Assembly: GCA_010015805.1 (NCBI GenBank)
Contig: ML978131.1
Span: 496,001 to 560,000 of the forward strand
Direction: 5' to 3'
Origin: Rhizodiscina lignyota
Taxonomy: Eukaryota > Ascomycota > Dothideomycetes > Aulographales > Rhizodiscinaceae
Length of the DNA: 64,000 nucleotides
Program-made: the position numbers and the translations under genes
Shown here: positions 36,684 to 58,664 of the stretch, in pieces
Layout of the letters: each line of letters begins with the position of its first letter
Position numbering within the stretch: position 1 is the stretch's first letter
The notes under the pieces: model-generated
The model's database searches: none
Seen by the model: the letters and a program-made list of their open reading frames with translations, nothing else
What the model was told of the DNA's origin: nothing

Positions 36684-39600
36684 TCAGTAACCCCACTGTT
36701 GAAGCCAGATGTCCATCCATTCTGCAGTCACGCCCGGAAGTTCTGCCAGATACTTGCTCTGCTTTCGTGTCTGATCGGTTTCAAACAGCGGTTTCCGCGC
36801 TTTCTCACCACCTCCAGTAAGCCCGGTGTAGAAATCAAGGAGACTGAAAGCTGACAGACTCCTGCCGGCTCCTTTGCTATCATCATTCTCATACTTCTGC
36901 CGTAGCGCCTCGATCCACGTGTCGAACGGTACTGCTTGAACCTCTTTTTCTCCCAAGCTTTGACTCAAGCGAGCTTGGGCTACTGGAAGAAGCCTTTGCT
37001 CCCAAGGGACTGGGGAGGGATTGACGCAGTGGAATACCTTCCCGCCTTCTCCATCGTCGCTTGGCTGCAGTGCGAGTTCCACAATGATAGAGGAGAGAAT
37101 GTCAACAGGTATCCAGTCGACATACTCATTCGTGCCTAGTGTGCGAGGGAACAGAGCCAGTTGAGCCGATGCTTCGACAATCTAATTCAGGCCTCAACGT
37201 CCAGTTGCCAGAACAAACGAATGGGGTACTCACGCTTGGCAACCATTCTTTCCGATTCCACAATCCGGATTGACTTGTCTGCTTCACTGGTCCCGCAATC
37301 TGTCCCACCCGACATACGGTTGCGTTCACCCCAAGCTTATCACTAGACTCAAGGAGCAGTTTCTCGGCCACGAGTTTTGATTGCCCATATCCAGAGCTGG
37401 CGACATTATCCTCGAAGAAAGGAGCTTCAGGGATCGAGGACGCAATGGTAAGTTTATTTGCAATGCCGACCGAGGAAGTGAAGAAGACCTGGATGGTGTT
37501 CCCGAGACTGGATGCAGCAAGACAAAGGCTTATCAAGTTCTTGACCCCGCGAAGGTGTGTGCTGAATGATGTGAGAGCCAGGTTGAAGTCAACCTGCCAT
37601 TGTGTATCTGAATGACTGTAAGCAAAGTAATATCCAAACAAGGTGAAGTCGGACCACACGTACGGATTATTTGTGTTGCATTCTTCAAGAGATAAAGATA
37701 GTCCTTGTAATCTAGTCCTAGATTATCTTTCCAGAGCGTTGCTTGCCTGAAGAAAACTCTCCGATTATGAAAATCTGTGCGAAGGCCACGCTGGGCATTT
37801 GATGCTTTCTGTCTCGACTCGCTATCCGCAGACCTATTGAGACACCATATCTCTTCGACTGTGCCTGAGTTCATCAGATCGTTCAGAACATATGAACCGA
37901 GGGACCCAGTACTTCCGGTAAGAATGATGATATGGCCCTCCCTTCTCGACTGGATTTTGGCAACACCGTTTACTGTACGAGGAGGGTTGGGGAGTTCGGC
38001 GAATAGACTTTCAAATAGCTGCTGCACTGGAGAAGGTCCGGAGTGTCTATACGCGATGTGGCCATTTGAATGAGGTGCGGATACGAGTTGATACAACGTC
38101 CTTGACAAGAGGCTGATTGTGGGATTCTGGTAAATCAATGCTGTGCTCACAGCGGACCTTTCGCCATTGACGAGCACGAGTCCCTTCCGGAGATACTTCT
38201 GCAGCGTCAAGACTTGAAGCGAGTCAATCCCAGCAGCAGTGAAGAAGTCCGCATCTTCCGGAAGATTGACAATACCAGTGACCGACTCGAAAGCCTTCCG
38301 AACCCCATCACGGAAGGTCTGCTCGTCAGCCGAATTCAACTGAGGCACATCAGCATCAGTATCCGAAAAAGACGAGTCTGCCTGTGCATAGAGATCGTCG
38401 AGCTCTTTCTTGTACAATTCGAGAGTCGGTCCACGTCGTACAGTGCCTTTACTCGTTTTCGAAAACGGCTTGTCCGGGGTTGCGAATAAGATGTACTCCT
38501 TTAGGAGTTGGGCATGAGACGGAGCTGATATATTAGCGTCTTCAATCCACGGCCATAGTTCGTCGATGATGCGATGCCTTTCGATCGATATGTGGGGCGG
38601 GTTCCCTAAGAGCTCGACTAACAGCGAGGTCTGAAATCTACCCTGCCCAGAAACCACGACAGCTGAAACTGCGGGATGCGCAGCAATCGTCAGCTCCATA
38701 TTATGAGGTTGGACCTTCTCCCCATTGGAGAGTACGAGCACGTTATCGGCTCGGCCTTCGAACGTAAAGAGGTCTGGCTTCGTGGGATGTTTCGAAAACA
38801 AGTCCTTGAACGAATACTCTTGCTGGTCCGGGAAGGTCGAGAAGATCGGTTGCCACAACTCCAATTCAGGCCTTCGCACCGCGACGAGTTCGTAGAGGCC
38901 ACCGCCACGGTCTTGAAACTCCAACCCACCATATGGGTGGAAATGTATGTAGTTCCAGTCCTCTCGGTCAGTCTCGACACATGGTAACCATCCTGTTTCC
39001 GTTGTGCCGATGGATAGTACGAGCTTCGTATGTGGGATGATTCGATCGCCAGCTTCCTTGCTAACCGGCCCTAGTCATATTAGCACTGGAATAGAATTGC
39101 AGTAGGGGTTCCTCGTACCTCCGCCATACGCTATTGCATTTACATTTTCCAATATCTTCAGGAACTCCTCGTCTTGCGAAATATCCTGGACAATGGAAGG
39201 CGCTGTAAAGACAGCGTCGACCTTAGAGTGTATGATGACCTCCTTCATTATATCAAGAGTGACGGGACGCTCCGGACCCAGAACAACAGTCGTGCCGTAG
39301 AAAAGTGGCCACAACAAGCCATTAGATAGCCCGGCCGCGTGGAATAAGGGAAAAGTAAGATATGCTCGGCTGTCGAAATAGTCGTGAAGCAGTAGTGGTC
39401 GCCCATTGATTGCCGGTAATGCAGTATTCGCATCACTAGATGCGATGCTATCTAGATATCTGCGTACGGGCTTTGGGTTGCCTGTACTTCCACTTGTGTG
39501 GAGGATCCATGCTGGATCTCTTTTGCCTTCTTCCCAACTCTTGTCATATGGGTAATGACGAGATGGATTGTCGTTGAGAAAGTGCCCTATGTCAGGCAGG

Positions 39601-40140
39601 TCATACAATTGGAGGGGGACACGATCAAGGACTCTCTCGATGTTGGTGCCTCGAGAAGGCTTCAGCCAAATTTTGCAATCTGTTGCTTCGATCACCGCTA
39701 CATCGCCTTCCACGCTGTTACGTGGAGATATGTATAGAATCTACGCATTGGATCTTAGGCGATCGTAATCTGATATTCGGCTTTCGTTGATTTACCTTGT
39801 AGCCAGCCTTAATAGAAGCGATGACCAGAATGAAATATCGAAGATCACCTGTCCTGTGAGTGAGTAGAGACAAACGGATTGTCAGATCGCTAGTCAGCAT
39901 ACCTGGTCCCAAGTAACCGACTGTCGGAAACTCATCTGCTCTCCCCAAGGTCTCTTCGAACCACCACGCGGCACGATTTACCGCATCTGCAAATTGTCGA
40001 GTTGTGATTTTCGCAAACGGAACCGTAACATCATTCTTAACTGGAACTTCATACAGCACACGATGCGGCTGTTCGTCTGCCAATTCATCTAGAACGTGCG
40101 GAAGTAGCCTCCTACCGGTGTCACTTCGTTGCTTTCGCAT
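36684..40140 (-). CDS. Adenylate-forming reductase, A-T-R (NRPS-like)
   Basis: Six exons (39903-40140, 39796-39848, 39119-39740, 37664-39070, 37234-37607, 36684-37181) give 1063 aa. The adenylation domain has the ATP loop LHTSGSTGNPKP (about residue 177), SIGTTETGWLP and FEGRADNVLVLSNGEKVQP. A carrier domain follows with FFTAAGIDSLQ, whose Ser (about 587) takes phosphopantetheine. Then comes a thioester reductase of the extended short-chain type, with ILTGSTGSLGSYVLNDLM (NADPH site), the active-site pattern SGYGQSKLVAEKL (Y-x-x-x-K) and IVEASAQLALFPRTLG. There is no condensation domain, so it should activate one carboxylic acid and release it as an aldehyde. It heads the nine-gene run to 58664 and is divergent from an MFS gene. 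Start at 40140 is the first ATG in frame; the substrate code is not readable by eye. Confidence 0.88.
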
Positions 40141-41181
40141 GTCTGGAATATTGCGGTGGTGGTTGCTCGTATGGCACGTCTGGGCCCTCACAGAGGGCTC
40201 CAAGGTGAAGGGCGGCCATAGTCAAGTACATCCTTCGACCTGTCCGGCCTACGCTTCCGTCTCAACGGATTCGTCGGCGGATTGATGCAAGCGATACTGA
40301 CCAGAACGCGGTACGCGACGAGGAGGTCGCCAAAAAGATGCTGCAGGGGTTAGACGCTATCCCGGGAAACACGCTCGGTGGTGACACAAAAGTTGAGCCG
40401 TAGCTACAGTACTAGCTCCAATACACTGGCATTCAAGGATGTCTGCACTCGTCAACCAATAAAGATTGTGGCTGTCAATTTGTACACTTCCAACAAACAC
40501 TGTCTGAAGTATATCCAATTAAGCCTCCAGAGATGCTATCGCTGGCGCTGAAGAAGAGAGCTCATTTCTTTCGATGAATCTACTCTATCGTAAATGGCTC
40601 GGGGCTCGACTATTCTGCCACCGTCGAGCCACGCTTTACTACTATTGTCATCGCCGAAAAACAACGCCGCTAGCCTGTCCTAAGCTCCGCTCCATATCTA
40701 CGTCTTCCCTTCCTGTTCATCACGCAATTCTCCGTCAATCTCACGAATCTTCCTTCATTGCGTGAACCCTCCGATTACTACTCAGCATGCGGTGTTATGC
40801 TCCAACATAGCTTAGGAGCAGGGTCTCTATTCTCCTCCCGCCACGCGATGTCGCGTCTAATGTATTCCGGTCGCCTTACCTTGCTTTAGCGATGAAGTAT
40901 CTAACACATGCTCCCATTCTATGGCTCGGATATGTCAAAATAGGAACAGCGTATTCGTTGATTCTGCGAACGGTTGTCTCGAGCTCCATGCTTGGCTTAG
41001 AGCCGTGATAGTTCAATGACAGCCTGGGCGATTGTTGATTGATGCTTGAATCAGTCATATATCAGCTTCTCTGTTTTCTCATTGAGTACAGATCTTCTTT
41101 TATTTCTACTCGTCTTACTCTACAAAACATCCACCATCCGCGGGTTTACTCCATCTAATCAGTGTTTCTTTTATTTTCGCT
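40141..41181. promoter_or_regulatory. Shared upstream region of reductase and MFS genes
   Basis: These 1041 bp separate two divergent cluster genes and probably drive both. An everted CCG pair, TCCGT-CTCA-ACGGA, lies at 40256-40269, a layout some Zn2Cys6 dimers bind, and other single CCG/CGG sites are scattered nearby. No gene is visible in it. Confidence 0.45.
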
Positions 41182-43179
41182 ATGGGACTCTGGGTTTTGG
41201 AACCAGCGTCAGACGAGCCAGTGCCAGGCACCGTTCATCTTCAGCGCGAGCACGAGAAACGAATCATAAATACCGACCATCTCAAACATGGAAAAGGAAG
41301 ACATGCCAATCTGGTCCTCGTACCTCAGCCGTCCGACTCGCCCAATGATCCCCTAAGTAATATTCATTATCTTGACGCTGAGCCCATCAAATCAAGTATT
41401 CTAACGTATCCAACAGACTGGTCACAAGCGGCGAAATGGTATCAGGCAATCTTTCTCAGCATGGGCACTGGTTTGATGGCTGGAACACATAATTTCGTCA
41501 ATCCCGCCAACGCTCTCATGGCGAAGCTCTTCCACACGAGCATATCGACGATATCTCGCAGCGTTAGTATCGTCCTGCTCACTCTCGGCGCCAGCGCAGT
41601 AGCAACCTCTCCGGCCGCGCGTATATGGGGAAAACGCCCTGGTGAGCGAAAATCTCATCTCTGGATGATCGATCATCCAGTTCGCAGTCGCTAATTCTGA
41701 TGTAGTCTTCTTGGTCAGCAACCTAATCGCAATCCTTGGCTATGGGATTGTCATTTCAGACACCAAAAGCCTTGTCTCTCTTTATGTTGGAAGAGCTATA
41801 CACGGGCTCGGCATAGCCGCACTCGAGTACCTTGTCAGTTCAAGTGTTGGCGATCTTTTCTTCGTTCACGAACGAGGTATGCATTTAGCAATATGGCACT
41901 ATGCGTTGTCAGGTGGAAACTCGATTGGTCAAGTCATTGCTACCCAAATCGTAGCCGCACAGGGCTGGCCCTGGGCGTTCAAATACGCGTAAGTTCTCAT
42001 ACAATTTGTGGATTTCACATGCTAAATTGGAACTCCCAGCATGATCATTTTTGCCGCTTATACGGTCATCCTCTTTTTCACGTGCCCTGAAACGACTTAT
42101 AACCGTCCGGCACAGCTCAATACCGACATTAAAGAGCTTCTGGAAGACAGCAGTGTCGAAAGTATTCACGACGAGAAAGGCGATGAGATTGCAAGCCTTG
42201 ATACGGCACATGTAACGACAATAGCAGCAGATCTCAAATCTCAGCCGCATGCTGTCGAACTCGAGTCAAGGTCGCCCGTTTATGAGAGAAAGAAGACGTA
42301 CTGGCAATCCCTGAGAGTATACAACGGTCGTTTTAGCGACGAGTCCCTTCTCCGTGCATTCATCACTCCGTGGAGCGCTTACCTTTTACCGGCAGGTGAG
42401 AAATCTCGCACATTAACATTAGTAGCATACTGACACGGTGTTTTAGTATCATGGACAGCTTATTCGTACGGCTGTTCTGTAGCATTTGCCGCATCGTTCT
42501 CAGTCGCCTTGGCGCAAGTGTTTGCAAAGCCTCCGTATTATTTCACTACCTCGCAAGTCGGGCTGACGGTTCTGTCTGCCTTCGTGGGTGCAACGTTAGG
42601 CAACATCTTCCCTGGTCCGTTTTCTGACTGGCTGGTCAAATACATGTCTCGCAAGAATAACGGCATCTACGAGCCAGAATTTCGCATCCCTTTAACAGTG
42701 CCATCGTTCGTCCTTGGCTTGATGGGGTTCTGGGGATTTGGCTGGTCACTTGACGCCAAGGCACATTGGATAGCCCCAGTATTCTTCTTCGGTCTAGCCA
42801 CGTTCGCTGGGTCGATTCAGTCACTGATATCGAACGCTTACTTGCTCGACTGCCACCGCGCTCATGCTCAGGATGGGTATGCTGCTGTAACCATCTGTCG
42901 TGGGCTCTTTTCTTTCTTGATTACAATGGTCATTAATGACTGGATCAGTAAGGAGGGTGTCAAGGACGTTTACTTCTGGATTGGGATGCTGCACGGAATC
43001 AGCTGTCTTTGGGGGATGGTATTGTATGTTTATGGCAAAAGGGTAAGTGTGCTCGAGTGTTCAGACACTTCATCTCACACTACTTCGGAATCATGCTAAC
43101 AGACTGTTATCAGATCCGCTTAGCGGTGTCGAAGGGATGGATTCAGAGTCGGTTAGGATCAGCGAGAGAATTGAAATAG
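41182..43179 (+). CDS. MFS transporter of the cluster
   Basis: Five exons (41182-41641, 41706-41988, 42040-42395, 42447-43042, 43114-43179) give 586 aa. A polar N-terminus of about 85 residues precedes the first helix. The two halves of a major facilitator fold are seen, with helices such as SIVLLTLGASAVATSPAARIWG, the loop GKRP, VSNLIAILGYGIVI, VGRAIHGLGIAALEYLV and FVLGLMGFWGFGWSL; a polar loop of about 100 residues lies between the halves. The arrangement is that of fungal drug:H+ antiporter-like MFS proteins, and its place beside the reductase suggests export of the cluster product or uptake of its substrate. Intron 1 contains a 20-bp perfect palindrome (41661-41680). The substrate is unknown. 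Confidence 0.88.
41661..41680. repeat. 20-bp perfect palindrome inside an intron
   Basis: CTGGATGATCGATCATCCAG reads the same on both strands and occupies about a third of the 64-nt first intron of the MFS gene. It could fold as a hairpin in the pre-mRNA or bind a dimeric protein. Confidence 0.9.
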
Positions 43180-43871
43180 CAGCCATGACCATCCGGATTA
43201 TGCAGATTGGCAGGATACAGGGTGTGGCGCTAGCGAATATTTAGTTGAATTTAGAAATTAATATTTTCGCTCCTGGATATAATGATCAGAGCTAACCACT
43301 TACGGCATTAGTATTTTGGTACTATATAGTAGAATACTTAGTAAGCAGGCGCTACGCGCGGGACCTTTGATTTCTACGCGTCTGTGATCAAACTCTCTAT
43401 CCACAACCAAAATACTACTCCTTACTATCTACAGACACACTGTGCCTAGTGAAGCGTGCAGTAACGGCAGCGGTGGAGCTGCTCCATTTCATTGTATAGC
43501 GCTGGTCACGATAAGCGCACGCCCGAGCTGTACGCGTTAGATACGCTTAATCAATCGGCCACTCATAGTTTGGGGCAAGAAAGTGAAGTATGAATCTCCA
43601 TCTAACGAATTGGAATTTTCACCATGTCCTTTTCCTTGACTGCCGTATCTAGGCTATGATTCAGTGCAAGGATTCTCGCTGCATTGCTTCCATGTGGAGT
43701 ATTAGCGGCGATGGTGCAATACCTGCCTGTTCTGTGGTCATGACCACGGCCTTGGGTTATCTCTCTGAACCACTCTTTCCGCTTTCCATTCAAGCCCCAA
43801 TCGAAGGGACAGCTGCTAGTCTTCTCCGAAATACATTGTCATAAGGAGAATGTGCTTGAAAAGTGAAAAAC
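43180..43871. other. Intergenic before the cluster regulator
   Basis: This 692-bp stretch between the MFS gene and the regulator gene is AT-rich around 43255-43350. An 11-bp inverted repeat, TAGTATTTTGG at 43309-43319 and CCAAAATACTA at 43407-43417, flanks about 90 bp. No gene is supported. Confidence 0.4.
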
Positions 43872-46682
43872 ATGAGTTTGCTTGATATCAGTCTCGTGGA
43901 TCCATCTTCTTTTGGCAAGAAACGGAAGCGAACAATCGCAGCTTGCGTGAGATGCCATGAAAGAAAGGTGAAGTGCGATGCCAGTATGTCAACAATCTCC
44001 CTTCGGCGATGTCTGCTTACGGAAATGCAGGAAGCTTATCGAAAGGGGAGTCCTGCAATGTACGTGGGTAGAGGCCTTAGTTTTATGATATCTCTGCGGA
44101 ATACTGAATCACTCTGATCAGAATTGTTTAACGGCTGGTGAGATCTGCCGGTAGGCGACAGTTTCGATGGTTACCTTGAAATGGCCTAATCTTCGTAGGA
44201 GTCATCTTGACGGACGGCTTCGAACGAACGGCCGAAGCAATGGAAGACCGAGGTACGAACACTTTATTAATAGCTTATGCTGCTTGTAATCTAATATGAA
44301 GCAGCATTTCACAAGCCGAGGATGCTGCCAGCAATACTGAGTCTGGTTCTGCATCGTCGTCCTCTGCCGTAAATTATCTAGCTTCAGGCGAAAGGGCAAC
44401 ACCTGTCTCTAACGACCAAACATCGAACCTCATTCATGCTCCAGATATTCCGGCGGGAACTACGAACGGTTACCCTCAACTCTCACAGACTGGCCAGAAT
44501 GGGCTGCTTTCCGCGGAAGTGTCAACTGACATTGCAGTTCCAAGTACGGCTGCACCAGTCCATCGCTTTCAATCGTACATTGAGGACAGTCTTGGGTCTT
44601 ACGCGCCTCGATTCCGTGCCGAAAATTCGTTATTAGAACCTCACAATCACTTCGATGTCGCCACTGGTCCACAAGGCCTCCCCTTTGAAGATTCTCATTA
44701 TCCAATAGAGATTGATATGGGTTCCCGCTCTACAATAGACTTGGAACAACAAGTGACGAATCTGGACTCGGCCGACATGGATTATCTCCGCGCAAAAGGT
44801 GCGCACACTGTCTTCATTCGTTTGATCTTTGACCCTAATGCACACAGGCGCATTCGAACTCCCTCCGTACAATTTGCAGGAAGATCTAGTACAGGCGTAT
44901 TTCGCAGAAGTCAATCCCGTGGCACCTATCATCAATCGGACAAAGTTTCTGAACGAATTCCACAATCACTGTGTTAGCAGTAGGCTCCTGCTTTTTGCTG
45001 TATTCACAGCTGGGTGCAAAGCGTGCCGAAACCCTCTGCTACTAGACCATAAGGGCACTAATCATCAGAGTGCTCGACGCTTCTACAAAGTTACCAAAGC
45101 ACTACTGGATACTGGATACGAACAGGATAAGGTCGCCCGAATCCAAGCACTTTTACTCATCACGTGGTGGTGGGATAAGAAGGTAAGTTTTGCGTTAGAG
45201 CAAAAGTGAAATTGGAACTATGTTAACCTGCTCCACCTAAATTCAGGACGATGGTGGTCGAAACATGAGGGCATGTGCTGTTGATGCAATCAACACCGCA
45301 CAAAGTATCGGAATGCACAGATGGGATCAGTATCCGCGATCAGATCCTGTCCTCCGAGGTCTATGGAAGAGAGTTTGGTGGACTTGTTTTATGCGCGACG
45401 TCGGTGTCGCGACTTCACATGGCCTTCCGTGCATTATCAGCCTATCCGAATTTGATGTACACTTTCTAGTAGCTGAAGATTTCTCCGAGGAGCCCCACGT
45501 GCCACCGGATCAGCAACAGTATCCGTATTCAAACGCAGAGATCTCCTTCTTCATAGAGCAAGCAAAGATCATGGAAATGCTACATCTCATCCAAAGCGAA
45601 CATATCACAAGATTCAGACTCCACAGCAACACAATCGGACCAATTGCGGACCGGCAAAGCGGTGGCACAGAAATGGAATATCCTCCAGGAGTCAAGAATA
45701 TTCGACTCGACTACGAGGACGACTATCACGATCAAAGCCTCAAACTTCTCAAGCAATGGTTTGAGACGGTTCCGGAAGCGGTCCGATATGATGTAGATGA
45801 CATCCAAGGCCACCGTTTCTGGCCCGCCTTCCTTCACATCTTGTACTTGTAAGTAATACCTGGGCCTTTTGAATCAATATCTGATTAGTTCAGCACCGCC
45901 ATTTGCATCCGATTCCGTGAAAGAGCTGTATCTCGGCCTACAGATGCTCGAGCTAGGGCGGAGAGGCAATACTGTCAGTCCCGAGGCATTGCCGCGGCGA
46001 GTATGATATTCAAGATCCTCCGCAACGTTAGGGCTCATGGACATATTTACCGCTGTACAGGACTGCTGTAAGACAAGCCATAAACTCTAACAGGCTTAGA
46101 AGCTAATTGTTGCCGTGTCATTGCAGTACTCAATCGGTCTTCAATTGCTTAATCTTCTTCCTCATTGAAGGCCAGTCACTCAATGAAGAAGTGAGAAAGG
46201 ATGCACGCAACAAATACTCGTTGTGTTTAAACGTTCTCTATGAGTTCAGCCAGCTTTGGGTGAGCGCGTCTCTTATTCATAGACTGTTCGAATCCCTCCA
46301 GGGGAGTATGCAGTTTCGAAAAGAACGCCCTCATTCTATATACTTCGACCAATGGCTCCCTCCCGTTCCTGGTCTTCATGTTTCGAGCGACATCACGAAC
46401 CAAAAGATGAGAGAGTGAGTATCTATTAATGTTGAAATTAAGCGAAATTGCTGATGTAGATGTAGGCTTCTAGCAACAGAATTCTATTATGCACCAAGTA
46501 GTACAGACGTTACCGGTTTTGAGCAGTCATCCAACAGCATTAGCACAGGCTTTACTCCCAATTTCTCATTCCCTATGGATGACACTTCACCGCACTATTC
46601 TCAAGGGTTTCCAGAAAACCTGGACGTGGAGCAATGGTACGATTTACGTGGAATCAGAGGTGTGTACAGGGCTGACACTTGA
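43872..46682 (+). CDS. Zn2Cys6 transcription factor of the cluster
   Basis: Ten exons (43872-43983, 44031-44059, 44122-44150, 44199-44252, 44302-44798, 44848-45182, 45247-45848, 45894-46067, 46127-46414, 46466-46682) give 778 aa. The zinc cluster at residues 25-56 (C25, C28, C35, C46, C49, C56) is coded over three exons, two of only 29 nt, and appears only after splicing. A basic stretch KKRKR precedes it. The fungal regulatory middle domain follows at about residues 240-560 (AYFAEVNPVAPIINRTKFL, LLLITWWWDKKDDGGRNM, RGLWKRVWWTCFMRDVGVA). It lies in the middle of the enzyme genes and is the likely pathway-specific regulator. The last exons, after an intron at 46068-46126, are inferred from frame and are less sure. 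Confidence 0.85.
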
Positions 46683-46945: not shown

Positions 46946-48091
46946 ATGGAAGCATCGCATCTCTTCTCTCCCCTTGGAGTGGGAAAATGTACACTTCAGC
47001 ACCGCGTTGTCATGGCCCCAATGACCCGGCGACGGGCCTTGGATGGGTTTGTCCCGAACGATCTGATGCGACAATACTATGAGCAAAGAGCCTCTACACC
47101 GGGAACGCTGCTCATCACCGAGGCCACGGCTGTGTCCCCTCGCTCCGCTTCACTTCCACATACACCTGGATTATGGACCGCAGAACAGATCGAAGGATGG
47201 AAGCAGGTCACATCTGCTGTTCATGCACGCGGTTCATTTATCTACGTACAAGTATGGATGTGTGGGCGGGCTGCGAGGCCAGGAGCTGTAAAGCGTGGTG
47301 CGGAGGTCATATCTCCGAGCGATGTATCGATTGGAGAAGGACATCCACAGCCACGGCAACTTTCCGAGGATGAGATCCAGCAGTGCATTGAAGAGTTCCG
47401 GCAAGGAGCAATCAATGCGATAGAAGCAGGCTTCGACGGGGTCGAACTTCACGGAGCAAATGGTTATATCATTGATCAGTTTACGCAGGACGTATCAAAC
47501 CACCGAGACGATAAATGGGGCGGCAGTACTGAGAATAGAGCAAGGTTTGGATTCGAAGTTGCAAAGGCCGTTGCCAACGCTATTGGCTCCGATCGCGTCG
47601 CCTACCGCGTCAGTCCCTGGAGCCGACATCACGGCATGAGGATGGAAGACCCAATACCGCAATTTACCTATCTGGTCAAGGAACTGCGGAAGCTTCAGTT
47701 GTCGTATCTGCATATCGTCGAAGCTCGCGTACAAGGCAATGCAGATACCACAGGAACAGAGTCAATTGATTTTCTGATCGATGCTTGGGATAATATCAGC
47801 CCGGTCGTTGTTGCCGGAGGTTACAACTCCAACACAGCAAGAGAAGTCGTAGACGAAAACCATGCCAAAGGAAGAGACGTGTTGGTGGCATTTGGCCGAC
47901 CTTTTGTTTCAAATCCGGATCTGCCGCTTAGGATCAAGGACTATCTGCCGATTGCAAAGCACAACCGCGAATTGTTCTACGAGGTGCTGAAGCCTGAAGG
48001 CTATATCGACTACTCGTTTTATTCAGTACAGGCCCCCCATCCAGCGTTGGATAGAGATATTCGTAGAGAGGGTATCGCAGTCGCGGCGTAG
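46946..48091 (+). CDS. Old yellow enzyme-type FMN oxidoreductase
   Basis: An intronless frame of 381 aa with the whole (beta/alpha)8 barrel of the OYE family. Seen are HRVVMAPMTRRRA near the N-terminus (FMN-side Pro-Met-Thr), the substrate-binding pair and Tyr in ELHGANGYIIDQF (H169, N172, Y174), SNHRDDKWGGSTENRARF, and the phosphate-binding end VVVAGGY and LVAFGRPFVSNPDLP. These enzymes use NADPH to reduce activated C=C bonds of enones. In the usual WHxGR segment this protein has WMCGR. The start at 46946 is the first ATG and fits the family; the frame is open slightly further upstream without an ATG. It stands between the regulator and the hydrolase, all on the plus strand. Confidence 0.92.
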   Translation: MEASHLFSPLGVGKCTLQHRVVMAPMTRRRALDGFVPNDLMRQYYEQRASTPGTLLITEATAVSPRSASLPHTPGLWTAEQIEGWKQVTSAVHARGSFIYVQVWMCGRAARPGAVKRGAEVISPSDVSIGEGHPQPRQLSEDEIQQCIEEFRQGAINAIEAGFDGVELHGANGYIIDQFTQDVSNHRDDKWGGSTENRARFGFEVAKAVANAIGSDRVAYRVSPWSRHHGMRMEDPIPQFTYLVKELRKLQLSYLHIVEARVQGNADTTGTESIDFLIDAWDNISPVVVAGGYNSNTAREVVDENHAKGRDVLVAFGRPFVSNPDLPLRIKDYLPIAKHNRELFYEVLKPEGYIDYSFYSVQAPHPALDRDIRREGIAVAA

Positions 48092-48486: not shown

Positions 48487-49380
48487 ATGTCAGAGAATAC
48501 TGGTGCCTCGAGATCGATAACAAGATCAGATCTTGTTAGGGCATCTTCGTCTCCTGACATCCGCCTCTTCTATACTATCGATTCTCCCTTACACAAAGCC
48601 GAAAAGACTCCCATAATACTGTTATCGAACTCCTTGGCCGCATCGACTCCACTCTGGAACGAATTCGTGGAAGCATTTGCCAATGAGTACACAATCGTCC
48701 GGTATGATGCACGATTCCACGGACAGTCTCCTCTGTCATCAACAAAGGATTACGACTATGAGCGCGGCCATACAATCGATGATTTGGCCGAAGATGTCAT
48801 CAAGCTCCTCGATGGCTTAAACATTCAAAGAGTCGACGCATTCATAGGCCTTAGCATAGGCGCTGCAGTAGGCGTTGCTCTCGCAGCAAAATATCCTGAG
48901 CGCTTCGATAGTTTCGTGATTGTAGGCACAAGGGCAAACGCCAAAGATGGAGATAACGCAGGGTACGATGCGAGGATAAAGTACGGCCGAGAGAATAGCA
49001 GCAGAGCACTTGGACAGCAGAGTGTCCAACGATGGTTTGGGGAACAGTGGATTCAGCATCATCCGGATAAAGCGTTATTCCTCTTAGATGTTGTCGGTGG
49101 CCAGTCTATCGAGGGCTTTGTTGCCAGCGTCCAAGCGCTGAGGAAGTTGGATCTATGGCCAGCTGCGGAAGAGATTAGCAAGAGGAGTGAGGGCAATAAA
49201 TTGTTGTTTGTCGTTGGAGCGGAGGACGCAGATCCAGTAGTGGAAGATACCAAGGCATTGGCTGAACGGACCGGCTCTGAGGCAGTGGTTGTCGAAGATG
49301 CAGGCCACATGGTCAATGTGCAAGCGCCGGAGCAATTCCATGATATTGTGAGGCGTAGAATAGAGCAAACCATCTCCTAA
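48487..49380 (+). CDS. Alpha/beta hydrolase, 3-oxoadipate enol-lactonase-like
   Basis: An intronless frame of 297 aa. The oxyanion region (IILLSNSLAASTPLWNEF) and the strand-turn YTIVRYDARFHGQSP match the enol-lactonase (PcaD) branch of alpha/beta hydrolases. The nucleophile is S123 in GLSIGA, the acid D247 or D249 in VVGAEDADP, and the base H274 in DAGHMVNVQAP. Enol-lactonases open the lactone formed late in catechol or protocatechuate breakdown; fungal cluster members of this fold also hydrolyse other lactones and esters. Its neighbour is a Baeyer-Villiger enzyme, whose ester or lactone product would be a natural substrate. The start is the only ATG in a good place (AAATGTCAG). Confidence 0.9.
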   Translation: MSENTGASRSITRSDLVRASSSPDIRLFYTIDSPLHKAEKTPIILLSNSLAASTPLWNEFVEAFANEYTIVRYDARFHGQSPLSSTKDYDYERGHTIDDLAEDVIKLLDGLNIQRVDAFIGLSIGAAVGVALAAKYPERFDSFVIVGTRANAKDGDNAGYDARIKYGRENSSRALGQQSVQRWFGEQWIQHHPDKALFLLDVVGGQSIEGFVASVQALRKLDLWPAAEEISKRSEGNKLLFVVGAEDADPVVEDTKALAERTGSEAVVVEDAGHMVNVQAPEQFHDIVRRRIEQTIS

Positions 49381-51999: not shown

Positions 52000-53405
52000 T
52001 TAGAAATTCTCCGCGTCGTGGCCAAACAACCATTCTCTTCTCGCTTTGTAGCCCCAAAATATCGGATTCTTTTCGTCATCTTTGGTGATCCACGCATCTC
52101 TGTCTTGCTGTTCTTTCCCGTCCGACAGATGATAAGCGTCCTGTAACTTCCTTCCAGCCTTCTGGACTACAGACGCGCGCGGTTGCCGGATCTTCTGATA
52201 TCTCTGTAGAGCTGCTGGGAGATTCTGTTTGGTTGCCGTTTGAAATATCTTTCGCAGTACAGCCGCATCTTCACAGGCCATTGCGGCTCCGGAAGCCATG
52301 TACGGCAGCATGGGATGCACTGCATCGCCGAGCAGAGCAGCTTTGCCAGACGGATGCACCCAGTGGTCGACGAGATCAAGATCGAATAATCTCCATTTGA
52401 GGAAGTCCTGCATGAAATCTCAGTATATGCAAGGAATTAGTATGAGAAAGGCCGAAATACCTTGCCCGCGAGGCTCACGATTTTCCTCACTCTTGGCTCC
52501 CAACCTGCGAACCTCCGAACCAATTCTTCATTGTCCGAAATGACGAGCTTTGTCTCATCTCCGACGAACTTCTGGTCCCGCATTGAGCGCGCAGAGCAAC
52601 AACATATAACGTTGTAGATCTCTCCGCCGCGTATTGGGTACCCAATGACATGCGCATCCGGTCCGCACCAGGAAGTTACCCATGGTTGGGAAAGGAGGTC
52701 TCTCAATTCCGGATCTGCAAGGACGTCCTGCCCTGGGATAAGAATACGGTAAGATATGTCTCCAGTATCGATTGGAGGGAGCTCGTGGCCTTGAAAAAGT
52801 GTACGAGCTTTGCTCTGCACGCCTGCTTCGCCGTCAGAAATGGGGCTGTATGTCTCTTCTGTACAAGGCGCCTCACCATCTGCGACGATAATGACGTCCC
52901 CTTCAACTCTCTCCCCCGTTTGCAAAGTCACTGCTGGCGCATCGAAGTCATACTCGTCCACTCTGCTACTCTTCCGTATTTCAACGCCGAGATCAAATGC
53001 CCTCTGCAACAACACAGCATGGTAATCGGCCCGATGCACCATTAGATAACAGCCACCAAAGTCCCATTCCGGAATACCATGCGGCATGTTCGCCAGTGTC
53101 TCGCCGCTGTCAAATCTTAAGAAGCGATTGCCATTTGAATATGTCTTCTTCATGTACGTCAAATCAATGCCCCATCGATACAGGATTTTGAAGCTGTTTG
53201 GCGGAATACGTAGTCCCGCACCAACTTCACCAAAGGTTGGAGACTGTTCAAGAATGAGGACCTTGTGGCCGTCGAGACGAAGTCCGATCGCGACTAGCAG
53301 ACCACCGATTCCCGCGCCTACGACGAGAACATTGAGTTTATCGCCAGGACTCTTCTCATCATGGCCATTCACGTAATCACCATTGGTTTCAAGCTTTTGG
53401 ACCAT
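52000..53405 (-). CDS. FAD monooxygenase, salicylate hydroxylase-like
   Basis: Exons 52461-53405 and 52000-52407 give 450 aa. The N-terminus has VLVVGAGIGGLLVAIGLRLDGHKVLILEQS (FAD, GAGIGG at 30-35 ), then FGEVGAGLRIPPNS and the FAD-contact segment MVHRADYHAVLL. The third motif is ALLGDAVHPMLPYMASGAAMACEDAAVL. This order is that of fungal salicylate hydroxylase-like enzymes, which hydroxylate (and may decarboxylate) aromatic acids. The middle motif reads VIIVADGEAPCTEE, whereas the family normally shows ADGxxSxxR, so pyrophosphate or NAD(P)H contact may differ. The start at 53405 is the only ATG near the domain. Confidence 0.88.
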
Positions 53406-54319
53406 CGCTGCACCACTGAATTCTGACAATACGAAAGAAATATTTGAGATGGGATTACTGGACGATGAAAGAATAGGACGAAGCTACAAGGTGTATGTAG
53501 AGTAATCTGAACATAACCGCGAACATATTGATACGCACTAAATCTTACACATCTCAATGAGACGCGCGCTCACATGACAACGGAGGAATAAAATCGAATT
53601 GCGCCATTCCTACGGTATTCTCGGACCCGTCATGAGAAGTAAAGCTGGCGATTCCGTAAATGGAATCGCCGGTCGAGAGAGCAGTGAGCTCCTTTGAAGC
53701 GAAGCGATCCCGCAGTAGGCTAAAGCACTGAAGGTGGGTCTGCGCCGAACCGTGATGAACAGCTCGAACAAGAAAGATCGATTTGATCCATCTGTCGACA
53801 CGAGGCCGGACCGCTATCCCAGAGCTGTCGCGACTAGCCCATTATCATACCATTTTGCAGTGGAGTGGCGAGACAAGGCTCCTTTCAAGTTTGGACCTGT
53901 TTCGCATTTCTGAATTCGAGGTCAATGTACCCCATTGATCTCCGCGTATGAGACGCTTGACTATATTAATAATATATAGATGGTCATAAGCGTTGAACAC
54001 TCTCTGAAGTCAGCCATCTCCGATTGCCTAAACAGGTTTAGCAGCTCCCGAAACGTGATCTCGATGCGTCTTGCTCAAAAGACCCACATGCGTTAAATCC
54101 ATTCTGAGAGTGTTCTCTCTAAGTCTGATCAAAGTTAAAGATGCATATGTAAAGCACGCGGAATACGTACAGGTATGTATCTTATTTGGTTAGTGGAAGG
54201 TTCTCGTGATCACGCGTCGTTACGCGCTTCGTAAATCAGAATAGGGAAAGCGCGCGTTCTCCGCAGAGCTTAGAGCTTTCTTTCTTCATCCAACAACCAT
54301 CAATCACCGCCCCGCAATA
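53406..54319. other. Intergenic, upstream of FAD monooxygenase
   Basis: About 0.9 kb holding the promoter of the FAD monooxygenase on the minus strand. No further gene is recognised; the part near 53960-53990 is AT-rich (TTAATAATATATAG). Confidence 0.4.
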
Positions 54320-54690
54320 ATGGCTCGCAGGCTCCACTTCTTCGACCTCCCTCGGGAGATGCGCGATATGGTCTACACCTACATAGTGACTCCCTCGCAG
54401 TTATCACTTCTTACGATGGCTAGATTCGGCACTTGCCTCTTGAGTTCTAATGCAAGGAGCAGGATATTCGACATATCAGGAGAATACTGGAGCGTGAGAG
54501 ACAAGATGTCAGACACCTTTTATTATGGAGGTCGGACGTCTCACGTGATATGGAATACCTCTTAGAGAGTGTCATGACACCGGTTGTGACAGCCGCGGGG
54601 TTCAAGCCTAAAGTCCTGAAAGGCATCCACGTTTATGACGATACTGGCGCAATGGTCTTTGGGGGAGCAGATGAGGTATATGTAGAATAA
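54320..54690 (+). pseudogene. Remnant of an F-box-like gene
   Basis: The first 81 codons (54320-54565) begin MARRLHFFDLPREMRDMVYTYIV, a typical fungal F-box-like start (L-P-x-E-x-R-D-x-V-Y). The frame ends at a stop, but a second frame from 54550 to 54690 reads on coherently (LLESVMTPVVTAAGFKPKVL and GIHVYDDTGAMVFGG). The two halves are out of phase with no good splice site between them, so a frameshift is the simplest explanation. The total, about 124 codons, is far shorter than the usual 250 or more. F-box proteins pick targets for ubiquitin ligases; this copy is probably dead. Confidence 0.55.
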
Positions 54691-56208
54691 CGGGATATAT
54701 GGATTCACGGGCATGGTAAAACGAATCTCTGTAGGGGTGGGTGGTGTACCCCCTTTAGCGCTAGGGCACACCCGGCCTCGGTACAGAAGTACCCTCTAGC
54801 TTAGGTACTGAAGTACCCAGATCACGGGGCACCCTGCACCCAACCCCATCCAGAGCTCGGTGTCCTAACCCCCCGGAGCTTAGGTACTAAAACTGGGAAT
54901 GCCAGAGTGCTAATGGGGATAAACACGCGAACCACGGGAGAATGGTGCTAGCGCCTGAACAGACTCTGCTCCATATCGAACAGGCTTGAAGCCATTGATG
55001 TAATTGTGCAGGGAAATGGCATGCGACAGTTGCGATACTTAAAGAATTTCATTTCCTGTATAACCGTGACTTGATGTCAATCAAGGTGGTGGCAGCATTA
55101 CGAGCGAGATTCGAGATGTAAGAATCTCCGTCGTAGCGAAGGTTGCTGCTTAATCTGTCAGCTTCGGTCGTTCAGGACGACGGAGATTGAAACATACAGC
55201 TCAACTTACGCAAAGGCTAGTAGTTTAGGAGCGTACACGCCTACTATCTGCCTCACCAAAGTATTCGCCGCAAGATACTGGGCCTGCTGCACATTTGATT
55301 GGCCAAACGCATGGTATGGTCGTGCTGAGTTCAGGCCAACTTCGAGACGCGCTGAAGTGTAAGCTCACAGCCAAGCTCTTCTGAAGGAATCACTTCCAGG
55401 TTACCGCCGCGCGTCGCTCTCATATGCTTTCGAAGCATCTTGTATCTCGTTTCACAGTTGGCATCGCGAGTTTGTAAGCGTGCCAAAGGGCGGAAAGTGC
55501 CCACGTTCATTGGTCACCTGGGTATACAGAGTAAAACAACGAGACGGAGCTCTGTTGTGAATGATAAGAGATGCATCTAAAGGAGCAAAAGCCCAAATTA
55601 ATGATTCCATAGCACCTTCTGCATCTTAACTGACGAGCCAAGAAGAAATATATTGGTGGACGAAGCTAATCCCCTTCAGGCTTCGTCACATCGATGATTG
55701 ACGATCAGGCATCGGACTCCGCGCTGTCTCAGATTCCGCGAGCGGAACATCCAACAACCTGCTCACCAAGCCTTCCTCTCACCAATCACTCATCAGTCAA
55801 TGCCATCAGCATTTCCGGGGCACGTTGCCCACGCTATTTCGCGTCTGCCAGCTGCCGACCTCACTTGACGATGGCCAAAATGAGGCATCTGTGCAATGCA
55901 AATGCGTCCGACATCTGCCGATAGCTGTCCCACACCCCTCAACGGGCAAGACCTGGGGATCTACCCCGCCGATGCCCTGAAGCAGCTGCGTTTCCGGGCT
56001 AGCTAATCTGGCTGGGTGGCTTAAGAAGGCGCGCGTGTTGCGTTCGCGAGTACGTACTGCCTCTATGCGAGATTGATGCGGGTAAGTGATCTCGGGAAGT
56101 CGCGCTGCTGTCACTTTTGTTATTCAAATAAGCCACTTGGCTGCACCTCTGAAGATGCATCTCTCTCATTCAATTCAATCTTCCATACGCGCTCAGTAAT
56201 CACTCACA
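54691..56208. other. Intergenic with short repeats, upstream of aldehyde dehydrogenase
   Basis: About 1.5 kb without a supported gene. At 54780-54793 and 54804-54817 stand two near-identical palindromic units (GGTACAGAAGTACC and GGTACTGAAGTACC), and AGCTTAGGTACT occurs at 54798 and again at 54878. A 12-bp inverted repeat lies at 55123-55188. These look like traces of a small repeat that cannot be assigned to a family. The right end is the aldehyde dehydrogenase promoter. Confidence 0.5.
55123..55188. repeat. 12-bp inverted repeat with 42-nt loop
   Basis: AATCTCCGTCGT (55123-55134) and ACGACGGAGATT (55177-55188) are perfect reverse complements and would form a 12-bp stem. It is located between the F-box remnant and the aldehyde dehydrogenase gene. 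Confidence 0.8.
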
Positions 56209-57724
56209 ATGGCGTCGGACGCAGTCAATGGCGGTGCTCATTTCACCGTACCTCTTATCATCAATGGCAAAGAAGTCATCACCTCCACCACCTTCCCCGT
56301 AATCAGCCCCTCGAGCAAGAAAGAAATATGGAGCAGTTCCTCCGCCGGCAAAGAAGAAGCAATTGCAGCTATCGAAGCTGCTGAAGCGGCCTTTCCATCA
56401 TGGAGCCGTACGAAACCTTCAGAGCGCCGCGACATCTTCCTACGCGCCGCCAACATACTTGAGAAGAGGGCCGACGAGGCGAAGCAGATCATGCAAGATG
56501 AGACGGGAGCGGTTGCCAACTTCACAGGATTCAACCTCATGACAACGGTGGAACAACTGCGCGATATTGCGGGGAGGATTGTTGTCAGCTTGAGCGGAAC
56601 TATCCCAGTTTCTCAGACTGAAGGGACAAGCGCTCTTATTTTGAAGGAGCCATTTGGAGTGATTTTTAGCATTGCGCCATGGTAAGATAAGGGATATTTT
56701 GACGGCAGAGCAATTGCTGATTCTCGCGTTTAGGAATGCTCCGTTCATCCTTGGCCAGAGAGCCATCTCCTACGCGATCGCCGTTGGAAACACAGCTGTC
56801 CTCAAGGGCAGTGAGATGTCCCCTCGATGCTTCCAATTGATCTCCCAATGCTTCCAGGAGGCCGGCCTCCCAGGAGGTGTGCTCAACGTCATATATACAC
56901 GGCCACAGGACGCAGCAGAAGTTACCAAGGCATGCATCGAGGCTCCACAGGTGAAGAAAATCACCTTCACTGGCAGCACTGCGGTTGGTAGCGTCATTGC
57001 GGAGCTCGGAGGCAAGAGTCTCAAGCCTGTGGTCATGGAGCTGGGTGGCAAGGCTAGTGCCATTGTGTGCGACGATGCAGAGCTTGACCATGCCGCATTC
57101 CAGTGCGCGCTGGGTGCCTTCATCCACAGCGGCCAGGTATGCATGTCTACGGAGCGAATTCTCGTCCACGAATCTATCCTTGAATCATTTTCCAAGGCGC
57201 TCACCAAGGCAATCAATATTTTGGGTCAAGGTGCCTCTGATAGCCCGATCCTAATCAGCCCAGTCGGTGTCAAGAAGAACCACGAGCTCATCAATGGTGC
57301 TGTCAACGGTGGTGCGAAGATTCTCCATGGAGATATCAACATCAAAGAGACCACTGATACTCGCATGCGACCAATCGTCGTTAGTGGCGTGACACCGGAG
57401 ATGGATCTCTACCACAAGGAGTCATTCGGACCGTCTGTCAGTCTCATTGCAATTTCGAGTGATGACGAGGCTGTCAAGATCGCCAATGATACCGACTACG
57501 GCCTATCCGGTGCAGTGTTTACAAAGGATCTCGTCAGAGGTCTGAGGATTGCAAAGAGCATTGAGACCGGAGCAGTTCATATCAACGGCATGAGCGTACA
57601 CGATGAGCCGAATTTGCCCCACGGCGGTGCGAAGAAGAGCGGCTTCGGCCGATTCAATGGGCAGCAGGGTATGGACGAGTTCTTGCGCACAAAGGTGGTC
57701 ACGTTCCTAGGAGTGGATCTTTGA
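56209..57724 (+). CDS. Aldehyde dehydrogenase, salicylaldehyde/vanillin type
   Basis: Exons 56209-56681 and 56734-57724 give 487 aa, the normal length of NAD(P)-dependent aldehyde dehydrogenases. The cofactor region has SIAPWNAPFIL and KGSEMSPRC, then ITFTGSTAVGS; the general base is E260 in VMELGGKAS and the nucleophile C294 in SGQVCMSTERILVH; near the end are KESFGPSVSLI, DTDYGLSGAVFT and KKSGFGRFNGQQGMDEF. The QVCMSTER form and the overall motifs resemble the salicylaldehyde and vanillin dehydrogenase branch, which turns aromatic aldehydes into acids. Its product could feed the salicylate hydroxylase-like gene next to it, and it could detoxify aldehydes made by the reductase. Confidence 0.92.
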
Positions 57725-57844
57725 GGGAGCGGAGTCTTGGCGCTGAGGAGTTGGAGTTTGGTGGCGCTGGAAAGCCGGAGCTCAGCATGGGATGTACGAA
57801 AAGCGCACTGGAAGCGATTTTCAGGGTATCCCAATGTAAAAGTT

Positions 57845-58664
57845 TCATACTTGAGTTTCTAGATCGCTCAAATCCAGGTCTTCTCCTGCTATCCCTCTCA
57901 CGATCTTCGCAACCACATCAGGATGGTTTACGAAGGGACTATGCGCTGCATCGACCTTGTAAATCTTTTCGTGATGAGAAGCGGTCTGTTGCAGCGTCTT
58001 AACAGCGAATCCTTGATCCTTCACAGGCCAAATGTACCAGGTCGGATAGTCCTCGTATGCTGCATATGTAACCTTCGACTGCATGGCCCTGAACGAGTGC
58101 GGTCTGGCTCTTTCAACAAACGACCGTGCAATCTCAGGGTCGATGTCCGGATAGAAGACCTTCTCCATGTTCGGCACGATCCAGCTCAGTCGTCCCTTTT
58201 CGCATCATCAGATGAGTAATTGACAGAACTGAAAGGGCGAGACTTACCTCGCGCCCATACCACGGAGGCTCTGCCGCACCCGGCATGTTCGACATTACGC
58301 TCCCGCCAACAGGCAGAACGAAAGCTGCCATATACACAATTCCCACTACGCACCCCTCCCGTCCCATGGCCTCGCGTTCCTTGCGCGTGAAGCCCTTCGA
58401 AGCCTCCCCAGCGATAAGTCCCCCGAATGAGTGCGCAAGAAGCAAGACATCCCGACTTCGTTCAATCTCGTTGAGAATCTCATACCGCACCAACGCGACG
58501 TCTGCGTCGAAGGATTGCGTCGGCACCTCGCTGGCTGAAGGCATTGTCTCTCCCTTGACGGTATATCCTGCCGCTTGGAGAAGTCCGATCACAGGGTTGT
58601 AGTGCTCGACGGCATGCCATGCGCCAGGGACTATGAGAATTATCGGCTTTGTCTTCGGCGCCAT
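57845..58664 (-). CDS. Alpha/beta hydrolase (esterase-like)
   Basis: Exons 58248-58664 and 57845-58195 give 255 aa. The N-terminus PIILIVPGAWHAVEHYNPVI is the oxyanion loop, the nucleophile is S79 in LLLAHSFGGLIAG, and the base is the His in VDAAHSPFVNHPDVV near the end. It is a small alpha/beta hydrolase of the Pfam AB_hydrolase_6 kind; relatives are esterases and hydroxynitrile-lyase-like proteins. It is convergent with the aldehyde dehydrogenase (120 bp apart) and is the last gene of the cluster-like run. No signal peptide is seen, so it is probably cytosolic. Confidence 0.88.

What the first reader, a model, noticed from the sequence alone, without database searches (positions are those of the whole stretch)
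36684..58664. Nine-gene candidate metabolic cluster with reductase, BVMO, OYE, two FAD/FMN oxidations, two hydrolases, exporter and regulator
Seen: an A-T-R reductase, MFS, Zn2Cys6 factor, OYE, two alpha/beta hydrolases, a BVMO, a salicylate hydroxylase-like FAD enzyme and an ALDH stand next to each other in 22 kb, bordered by housekeeping genes on the left. From family knowledge: such mixtures of a core activating enzyme, tailoring enzymes, transporter and regulator mark fungal metabolic clusters. Inference: the product or substrate is an aromatic acid/aldehyde or cyclic ketone. I recognise no described cluster with this set.
Basis: partly seen in the sequence, partly recalled or inferred. 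Interest (0 to 1): 0.85.

Follow-up and report, generated by a model that had tools for sequence, protein, structure and literature searches.

The report
Fungal aromatic-compound enzyme gene cluster
Nine neighbouring, intact genes in an unnamed fungus look like a kit for breaking down or modifying small plant-type aromatic compounds; each enzyme type is known, the combination was not found in the papers searched, and that the genes work together is not yet shown.

Summary
In detail: nine genes of the stated families lie in 22 kb, with canonical introns, no internal stops in the models and the expected motifs. Comparison with PDB sequences narrows the chemistry. The 'salicylate hydroxylase-like' FAD enzyme groups with decarboxylating 4-hydroxybenzoate/vanillate 1-hydroxylases (305/263/261 bits; next 162). 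The ALDH groups with salicylaldehyde/vanillin dehydrogenases (377/366/344; next 258). The A-T-R protein looks like a fungal carboxylic acid reductase. The BVMO is type I without a specific relative. I read the locus as an aromatic aldehyde/acid/ketone catabolic or detoxification cluster rather than a natural-product cluster. That all nine genes form one unit is not shown: no shared regulator-type site, a 2.8-kb gap without a recognisable gene, and CAR and ALDH run opposite reactions. No fungal genomes were available, so synteny is untested. Likely a new member of a known kind. The boldest open reading is dioxygenase-free ring opening, as in nicotinate catabolism of Aspergillus nidulans.

The parts
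36684..40140 (-). ATR: adenylation-thiolation-reductase protein, 1063 aa, 6 exons; fungal carboxylic acid reductase type
   Evidence: Pfam AMP-binding, AMP-binding_C_3, PP-binding, NAD_binding_4; R domain best PDB match 8aep, 239 bits (before the splice correction), the NcCAR R domain; counterparts of essential NcCAR residues by motif
41182..43244 (+). MFS transporter, 585 aa (stop 43099, 4 exons) or 611 aa (stop 43244, 5 exons)
   Evidence: Pfam MFS_1 87 bits on the 585-aa form; models
43872..46682 (+). Zn2Cys6 transcription factor, 768 aa, 10 exons
   Evidence: Pfam Zn_clus 25.9 and Fungal_trans 92.9 bits; N-terminal introns placed by hand
46946..48091 (+). OYE: old yellow enzyme, 381 aa, no intron, H-x2-N-x-Y motif (169-174)
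   Evidence: Pfam Oxidored_FMN 304 bits; best PDB 4qnw chanoclavine-I aldehyde reductase 382 bits, 47.8% identity over 358
48487..49380 (+). ABH1: alpha/beta hydrolase of 3-oxoadipate enol-lactonase (PcaD) type, 297 aa, no intron
   Evidence: NCBIfam TIGR02427 152 bits, below its cut-off of 256; best PDB 2xua PcaD 88 bits
49957..51908 (+). BVMO: type I Baeyer-Villiger monooxygenase, 572 aa, 5 exons
   Evidence: fingerprint FQGKLLHMAQWD and two Rossmann motifs; best PDB matches 170-188 bits, spread over CHMO, PAMO, steroid MO, OTEMO and 5j7x (5j7x is BVMO-AFL838)
52000..53405 (-). FAD hydroxylase, decarboxylating 4-hydroxybenzoate/vanillate 1-hydroxylase group, 432 aa, 3 exons
53406..56208 (.). 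2.8-kb stretch between FAD hydroxylase and ALDH without a recognisable gene; contains both upstream regions
   Evidence: six-frame Pfam scan: 2 matches, E 0.08, both below cut-off; no tandem array there
56209..57724 (+). ALDH of salicylaldehyde/vanillin dehydrogenase group, 487 aa, 2 exons; catalytic Cys and Glu motifs present
   Evidence: Pfam Aldedh 438 bits; PDB 6qhn 377, 9ihb 366, 4jz6 344 bits, next 258; motifs. NCBIfam models do not single out this group
57845..58664 (-). ABH2: second alpha/beta hydrolase, 255 aa, 2 exons; specific type unknown
   Evidence: Pfam Abhydrolase_6 63 bits; two weak PDB matches, one an ancestral hydroxynitrile lyase; no NCBIfam match
40141..41181 (.). divergent upstream region shared by ATR and MFS, 1.04 kb
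   Evidence: gene models; no shared CGG-type dyad with the other upstream regions

Best explanation
A fungal catabolic/detoxification cluster for small plant-type aromatics. Shown by sequence: nine intact gene models of the named enzyme groups. Inferred mechanism: (1) ABH2 may free an aromatic acid or phenol from an ester; (2) ALDH oxidises an aromatic aldehyde to the acid; (3) the FAD hydroxylase replaces the carboxyl group with OH, giving a hydroquinone or methoxyhydroquinone; (4) in a parallel arm, BVMO turns an aryl ketone (acetophenone type) or cyclic ketone into an ester or lactone, which ABH1 hydrolyses, giving again a phenol/hydroquinone or an open-chain acid; (5) OYE reduces quinone or enone intermediates; (6) MFS imports or exports the compound and the Zn2Cys6 protein switches the set on; (7) ATR, a carboxylic acid reductase, reduces surplus aromatic acid to the aldehyde for detoxification, or belongs to a separate unit with MFS. 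Ring cleavage of the hydroquinone would be done by enzymes encoded elsewhere. The odds given for this and the rivals overlap; they are not exclusive.
For: Two enzymes group with aromatic-acid and aromatic-aldehyde enzymes of the PDB by wide margins (FAD hydroxylase 305/263/261 v 162 bits; ALDH 377/366/344 v 258). Aldehyde to acid to hydroquinone by an ALDH and such a hydroxylase is a known fungal route: vdhA/vhyA in Aspergillus niger and arylaldehyde dehydrogenase plus TvMNX1 in Trametes versicolor. ATR has counterparts of the essential NcCAR residues. BVMO relatives on bacterial plasmids: of 6 neighbourhoods opened, an annotated alpha/beta hydrolase lies directly beside the BVMO in 1, in the order BVMO-SDR-hydrolase-ALDH in 1, as third gene downstream in 1, and not within three genes in 3. 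TF-OYE-ABH1-BVMO run co-directionally with gaps of 263, 395 and 576 bp, and the FAD hydroxylase gene ends 91 bp from BVMO. No PKS, NRPS condensation, terpene synthase, prenyltransferase or P450 domain in the parts scanned.
Against: No expression, metabolite or synteny data. No CGG/CCG dyad stands out in the upstream regions; an excess of other dyads shared by 8 of 9 regions (16 v 6.7 +/- 2.2 in 12 shuffles; 95 v 71 +/- 9 for 7 or more; none in 9 of 9) holds no CGG/CCG pair, is also seen in 2-6 of 12 control regions, and is unexplained. CAR and ALDH catalyse opposite reactions. No ring-cleavage dioxygenase domain in the window parts scanned. NCBIfam does not single out the aromatic group for ALDH (best aminobutyraldehyde, succinate-semialdehyde and HpaE types, 303-296 bits, all far below cut-off), and puts the FAD enzyme nearest 3-hydroxybenzoate 6-monooxygenase, also below cut-off. 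BVMO is equidistant (33-35%) from 6 bacterial relatives of varied context, and the hydrolases beside those BVMOs gave no match to ABH1 or ABH2 at E 0.01; only a pcaD gene in L002 matched ABH1, at 28%. ABH1 is below the PcaD cut-off and its single-sequence structure model was too poor to use. ALDH/ABH2 are 2.8 kb away with GC3 0.60 v 0.48-0.57 for the other seven, though flanking genes span 0.49-0.74.
Confidence: 0.5

Rival explanations
1. Two independent units side by side: ATR+MFS (with or without the regulator), an aromatic-acid reduction/export pair, and OYE-ABH1-BVMO-FAD hydroxylase(-ALDH-ABH2), a catabolic set. The reader's nine genes are then not one pathway.
For: ATR and MFS share a divergent upstream region; CAR and ALDH oppose each other; a 2.8-kb gap separates FAD hydroxylase and ALDH; no common regulator-type promoter element.
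Against: Compact spacing from TF to FAD hydroxylase and only one regulator in the 22 kb; ATR probably acts on the same compound class as the FAD hydroxylase.
Confidence: 0.3
2. A secondary-metabolite biosynthetic cluster: ATR activates and reduces a carboxylic acid, OYE, BVMO and FAD hydroxylase tailor it, MFS exports it.
For: Family mix typical of fungal clusters (general knowledge); OYE is closest in the PDB to chanoclavine-I aldehyde reductase, an ergot-pathway enzyme (recalled); a carboxylic acid reductase acts in biosynthesis of vibralactone (BvCAR).
Against: No PKS, NRPS condensation, terpene synthase, prenyltransferase or P450 domain in the parts scanned; the ALDH and FAD hydroxylase groups are known from catabolism.
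Confidence: 0.2
3. Alicyclic enone/ketone or terpene-ketone degradation: OYE saturates a cyclic enone, BVMO makes the lactone, ABH1 opens it, ALDH oxidises the aldehyde; the FAD hydroxylase is a bystander or acts on a related compound.
For: OYE-ABH1-BVMO are contiguous; best BVMO matches include cyclohexanone monooxygenases; a bacterial BVMO-SDR-hydrolase-ALDH set exists.
Against: ALDH and FAD hydroxylase group with aromatic substrates; no alcohol dehydrogenase domain among the nine; BVMO similarity is not specific.
Confidence: 0.2
4. Chance neighbourhood of fast-turnover metabolic genes with no joint function.
For: No promoter or synteny support; such families are numerous in fungal genomes (general knowledge).
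Against: Nine in a row with regulator and transporter, related chemistry, short gaps.
Confidence: 0.15

Closest known systems
Aspergillus niger vanillin/vanillate pathway (vdhA, vhyA, mhdA, omeA; PMC8336404, passages read)
   Same: aromatic aldehyde dehydrogenase plus FAD hydroxylase that turns the acid into a hydroquinone
   Different: no dioxygenase domain found in the window parts scanned; OYE, BVMO or CAR neighbours are not mentioned in the passages read. Sequences were not compared
Trametes versicolor / Candida parapsilosis 4-hydroxybenzoate 1-hydroxylase route (PMC12915361, passages read)
   Same: FAD hydroxylase group; arylaldehyde dehydrogenase feeds it
   Different: hydroquinone hydroxylase and intradiol dioxygenase not seen here
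Aspergillus nidulans hxn nicotinate cluster (PMC9304392 and PMC8478523, passages read; PMC5746545, abstract start)
   Same: decarboxylating FAD monooxygenase (HxnX) plus OYE (HxnT) plus transporters and regulator; ring opened by a hydrolase (HxnM)
   Different: here BVMO and enol-lactonase-like hydrolase instead of HxnW/HxnM; the FAD enzyme is nearer 4-hydroxybenzoate 1-hydroxylase (305 bits) than NicC (145), the nearest homolog of HxnX; regulator Zn2Cys6, not C2H2
Aspergillus terreus 3-hydroxyanthranilate cluster neighbourhood (PMC7842363, passages read)
   Same: a BVMO gene syntenic with it and a salicylate-hydroxylase-like FAD gene in its vicinity, the latter upregulated on salicylate
   Different: no 3-hydroxyanthranilate pathway domain among the nine
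NcCAR, Neurospora crassa carboxylic acid reductase (PMC10168641 and PMC5826065, passages read)
   Same: A-T-R order, similar size, counterparts of essential residues
   Different: only the R domain could be compared by alignment; cluster context not compared

Membership tests
Fungal carboxylic acid reductase (NcCAR type) | A-T-R domain order, no condensation domain | tested here: met
   Pfam
Fungal carboxylic acid reductase (NcCAR type) | essential residues H237, E433, S595, Y844, K848 of NcCAR | tested here: met
   motifs NGEK, GIDSL, YGQSK at similar spacing; H231 in PLFHAAGL found by reading the sequence. Assigned by motif and spacing, not by a full alignment
Fungal carboxylic acid reductase (NcCAR type) | reduces aromatic acids to aldehydes | not testable with these tools
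   needs enzyme assay
Decarboxylating 4-hydroxybenzoate/vanillate 1-hydroxylase | group A FAD monooxygenase closer to 8gsm/8x38/8r2t than to other groups | tested here: met
   305/263/261 v 162 bits
Decarboxylating 4-hydroxybenzoate/vanillate 1-hydroxylase | substrate-binding residues | not tested
   no residue list for this group in the passages read
Type I Baeyer-Villiger monooxygenase | two GxGxxG motifs and FxGxxxHxxxW[P/D] (motif recalled) | tested here: met
4-hydroxyacetophenone monooxygenase (HAPMO) | long N-terminal extension (about 140-150 aa, recalled) | tested here: not met
   about 45 residues before the matched core; 2 of 6 bacterial relatives have 138-148 (L003, L004)
Old yellow enzyme | FMN barrel with His/Asn pair and Tyr | tested here: met
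   HGANGY at 169-174, Pfam
Salicylaldehyde/vanillin dehydrogenase group | closer to these than to other ALDH, with catalytic Cys and Glu | tested here: met
   PDB ranking, motifs; NCBIfam ranking does not single the group out
3-oxoadipate enol-lactonase (PcaD) | NCBIfam TIGR02427 cut-off | tested here: not met
   152 bits v cut-off 256 (a bacterial model)
Fungal secondary-metabolite cluster | PKS, multimodular NRPS, terpene synthase or prenyltransferase core | tested here: not met
   none in the parts scanned; ATR only
Fungal metabolic gene cluster (any) | co-regulation | tested here: inconclusive
   no shared regulator-type motif; no expression data
Fungal metabolic gene cluster (any) | conserved gene order in other species | not testable with these tools
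   no genome held for the window; scans of bacterial/archaeal and viral collections found no relative
hxn-type nicotinate cluster | HxnS-type molybdenum nicotinate hydroxylase gene nearby | tested here: not met
   no such domain in the proteins and frames scanned

The most novel reading that the evidence does not exclude
The cluster encodes a ring-opening route for carbocyclic aromatic acids that needs no ring-cleavage dioxygenase, with the same logic as the A. nidulans nicotinate pathway: the FAD hydroxylase replaces the carboxyl group with OH, OYE partly saturates the resulting quinone/dienone, BVMO inserts oxygen beside the ring ketone, the enol-lactonase-like hydrolase opens the lactone, and ALDH oxidises the aldehyde end to a diacid.
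Probability: 0.1. Interest if true: 0.75.

Novelty: new member of a known kind. Interest (0 to 1): 0.35.

Why it matters
Fungal routes for lignin- and plant-defence-type aromatics are incompletely mapped, and genes for Baeyer-Villiger steps on aryl ketones are, as far as I recall, rarely placed in a fungal pathway. A compact set of CAR, ALDH, decarboxylating hydroxylase, OYE, BVMO and hydrolases gives named candidates for testing that. If the dioxygenase-free route were real it would be a new way for fungi to open a benzene ring; if the set is only an upper pathway feeding hydroquinones it is a useful but ordinary addition.

Tried and rejected
Gene finding: a first codon-usage model merged neighbours and was replaced by region-limited models. 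These missed in-frame introns in ATR and the FAD hydroxylase, the start of OYE and the first exons of the regulator; those were placed by hand from homology, reading frame and splice signals. Searches used the models before the ATR/FAD corrections.

Shared promoter element: CGG/CCG dyads of spacing 0-20, gapped dyads and 7-10-mers were tested; no regulator-type site. The dyad excess stays unexplained.

Bacterial neighbourhoods of BVMO relatives: 6 of the 25 listed hits, picked by hand to avoid near-duplicates (395 records in all), were opened; identities 33-35%, no orthology signal, used only as weak support.

A single-sequence structure model of ABH1 had mean pLDDT 55 and was not searched. 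A taxonomy look-up had no bearing. The antisense ORF opposite the Hsp90-like gene (21070-22278) was set aside as a probable artefact without a test.

Considered and rejected: ergot-type cluster because OYE resembles chanoclavine-I aldehyde reductase (no prenyltransferase domain in the parts scanned); HAPMO as the BVMO identity (too short at the N terminus).

Full report
What was checked. I built gene models from codon usage and splice signals, corrected them by homology, frame and splice sites, and scanned the proteins against Pfam, NCBIfam (six of the nine) and PDB sequences (seven of the nine; not MFS and the regulator).

The nine genes. In order: ATR (-, 36684-40140), MFS (+, 41182-43099 or 43244), Zn2Cys6 regulator (+, 43872-46682), OYE (+, 46946-48091), ABH1 (+, 48487-49380), BVMO (+, 49957-51908), FAD hydroxylase (-, 52000-53405), ALDH (+, 56209-57724), ABH2 (-, 57845-58664). 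None of the models holds an internal stop; the introns tabled run 45-79 nt with GT donors and AG acceptors, and those added or moved later are 53 and 54 nt. Catalytic motifs are present (for ABH2 the nucleophile AHSFGG was seen by reading the sequence, the regular expression did not catch it). So the genes look intact, not relics.

Two splice corrections matter. Removing a 54-nt in-frame intron and shifting one donor in the FAD hydroxylase raised its best PDB score from 274 to 305 bits. Removing a 54-nt in-frame intron in ATR raised the AMP-binding score from 82.8 to 97.7 bits.

What each enzyme is closest to. FAD hydroxylase: 8gsm '4-hydroxybenzoate decarboxylase' 305 bits, 8x38 'decarboxylative vanillate 1-hydroxylase' 263, 8r2t 261; then 4bjy 'probable salicylate monooxygenase' 162 (a 3-hydroxybenzoate 6-hydroxylase by my recall), tropone 2-monooxygenase 155, 6-hydroxynicotinate 3-monooxygenase 145, salicylate hydroxylases 135 and 116. 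The name 'salicylate hydroxylase' is therefore less apt than 4-hydroxybenzoate/vanillate 1-hydroxylase; NCBIfam, which has bacterial models, puts it nearest 3-hydroxybenzoate 6-monooxygenase, far below cut-off (204 v 459). ALDH: salicylaldehyde dehydrogenase 6qhn 377, vanillin dehydrogenase 9ihb 366, NahF 344, next 258; NCBIfam ranks aminobutyraldehyde, succinate-semialdehyde and HpaE types first, all below cut-off. OYE: chanoclavine-I aldehyde reductase 382, next 285, 47.8% identity over 358 aligned residues. ABH1: PcaD 88 bits, NCBIfam PcaD 152, below its cut-off of 256. BVMO: best matches 170-188 bits to bacterial cyclohexanone, phenylacetone and steroid enzymes, OTEMO and the fungal 5j7x without preference. 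ABH2: two weak matches. ATR: its R domain matches the NcCAR R domain at 239 bits, and the residues essential in NcCAR have counterparts by motif and spacing.

How it most likely works. ALDH and FAD hydroxylase give aldehyde to acid to hydroquinone, a route shown for Aspergillus niger (vdhA, vhyA) and described for Trametes versicolor. BVMO plus a hydrolase gives ketone to ester or lactone to phenol or acid; an annotated hydrolase lies within three genes of the BVMO in 3 of 6 bacterial neighbourhoods opened, but those hydrolases showed no match to ABH1 or ABH2. OYE would reduce quinones or enones. ATR would reduce aromatic acids, as NcCAR does with benzoate. These steps are inferences from family membership; no substrate is shown.

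Is it one cluster? For: short gaps from the regulator to the FAD hydroxylase (263, 395, 576 and 91 bp), one regulator and one transporter, related chemistry. Against: no shared regulator-type site, a 2.8-kb gap without a recognisable gene before ALDH, opposite reactions of ATR and ALDH, and a modest GC3 difference (0.60 for ALDH and ABH2, 0.48-0.57 for the other seven, 0.49-0.74 in flanking gene models). My preferred core is TF-OYE-ABH1-BVMO-FAD hydroxylase; ATR/MFS and ALDH/ABH2 are possible but unproven members. How likely nine such genes in a row would be by chance could not be estimated without the genome.

What was not found. No PKS, NRPS condensation, terpene synthase, prenyltransferase, P450 or ring-cleavage dioxygenase domain appeared in the nine cluster models, nine flanking models or ORF pieces, seven further ORFs, and the six frames of 10.3-13.0, 14.9-17.9, 53.4-56.2 and 58.7-62.6 kb (E limits 0.001 to 0.1). 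The Hsp90-like gene and the shorter intergenic stretches were not scanned. Lower-pathway genes, if any, lie outside what was scanned.

What is known. Aspergillus niger vdhA/vhyA, T. versicolor MNX1, the A. nidulans hxn cluster (HxnX, HxnT, HxnM) and the A. terreus salicylate-induced region with a BVMO and an FAD gene are the closest systems. In each case I read search passages, not whole papers, and their sequences were not at hand. The hxn pathway is a fungal precedent for decarboxylating hydroxylation, then OYE ring reduction, then hydrolytic ring opening; the present set has the pieces for a carbocyclic version with BVMO and lactonase. That is the boldest reading; I give it 0.1. The searches (no paper) listed no paper that by its title or abstract start describes this set; nor did the broader search (25 of 36 listed).

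Other passages read. Two papers on salicylate-hydroxylase genes in plant-associated fungi (PMC7663156; PMC5006380), one on Ophiostoma piceae with sapwood-induced clusters holding a salicylate hydroxylase or an ALDH plus FAD gene (PMC3680317), and a review on A. niger aromatics (PMC12388069) gave context, not a match.

Verdict. Real, intact-looking, ordinary parts; an unproven combination. A new member of the known kind 'fungal metabolic gene cluster', most likely catabolic for aromatics.

Noticed in passing
28333-29678 (-): Another aromatic-type FAD monooxygenase (FAD_binding_3, 137 bits), 7 kb left of ATR among housekeeping-type genes.
   Followed up: partly
5701-7072 (+) and 17928-19084 (-): Two class I methyltransferases of the same Pfam type (Methyltransf_23); LaeA-like by recall.
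   Followed up: partly
12988-14932 (+): A second Zn2Cys6/Fungal_trans regulator, between two stretches of about 3 kb without Pfam matches.
   Followed up: partly
53406-56208: 2.8 kb without a recognisable gene between FAD hydroxylase and ALDH; one short ORF (54245-54565) with an F-box-like start by eye, no Pfam match.
   Followed up: partly
upstream regions of the nine genes: More short dyads shared by 7-8 of 9 upstream regions than in dinucleotide shuffles, none of CGG type and unexplained.
   Followed up: partly
59646-60347 (-): Fig1-type membrane protein fragment (PF12351), the only domain above a Pfam cut-off between ABH2 and the pectate-lyase-type gene.
   Followed up: no
62631-63906 (+): Rhamnogalacturonase/pectate-lyase-type beta-helix protein (PF12708, 201 bits), possibly running off the window.
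   Followed up: no
21070-22278 (+): 402-aa open frame opposite the Hsp90-like gene; probably an artefact of charged-residue repeats, not tested.
   Followed up: no
L004 (Sphingomonas pISP0) 5557-10752: Bacterial BVMO-SDR-alpha/beta hydrolase-ALDH set on a plasmid typed as conjugative, a ketone-opening module by annotation.
   Followed up: no
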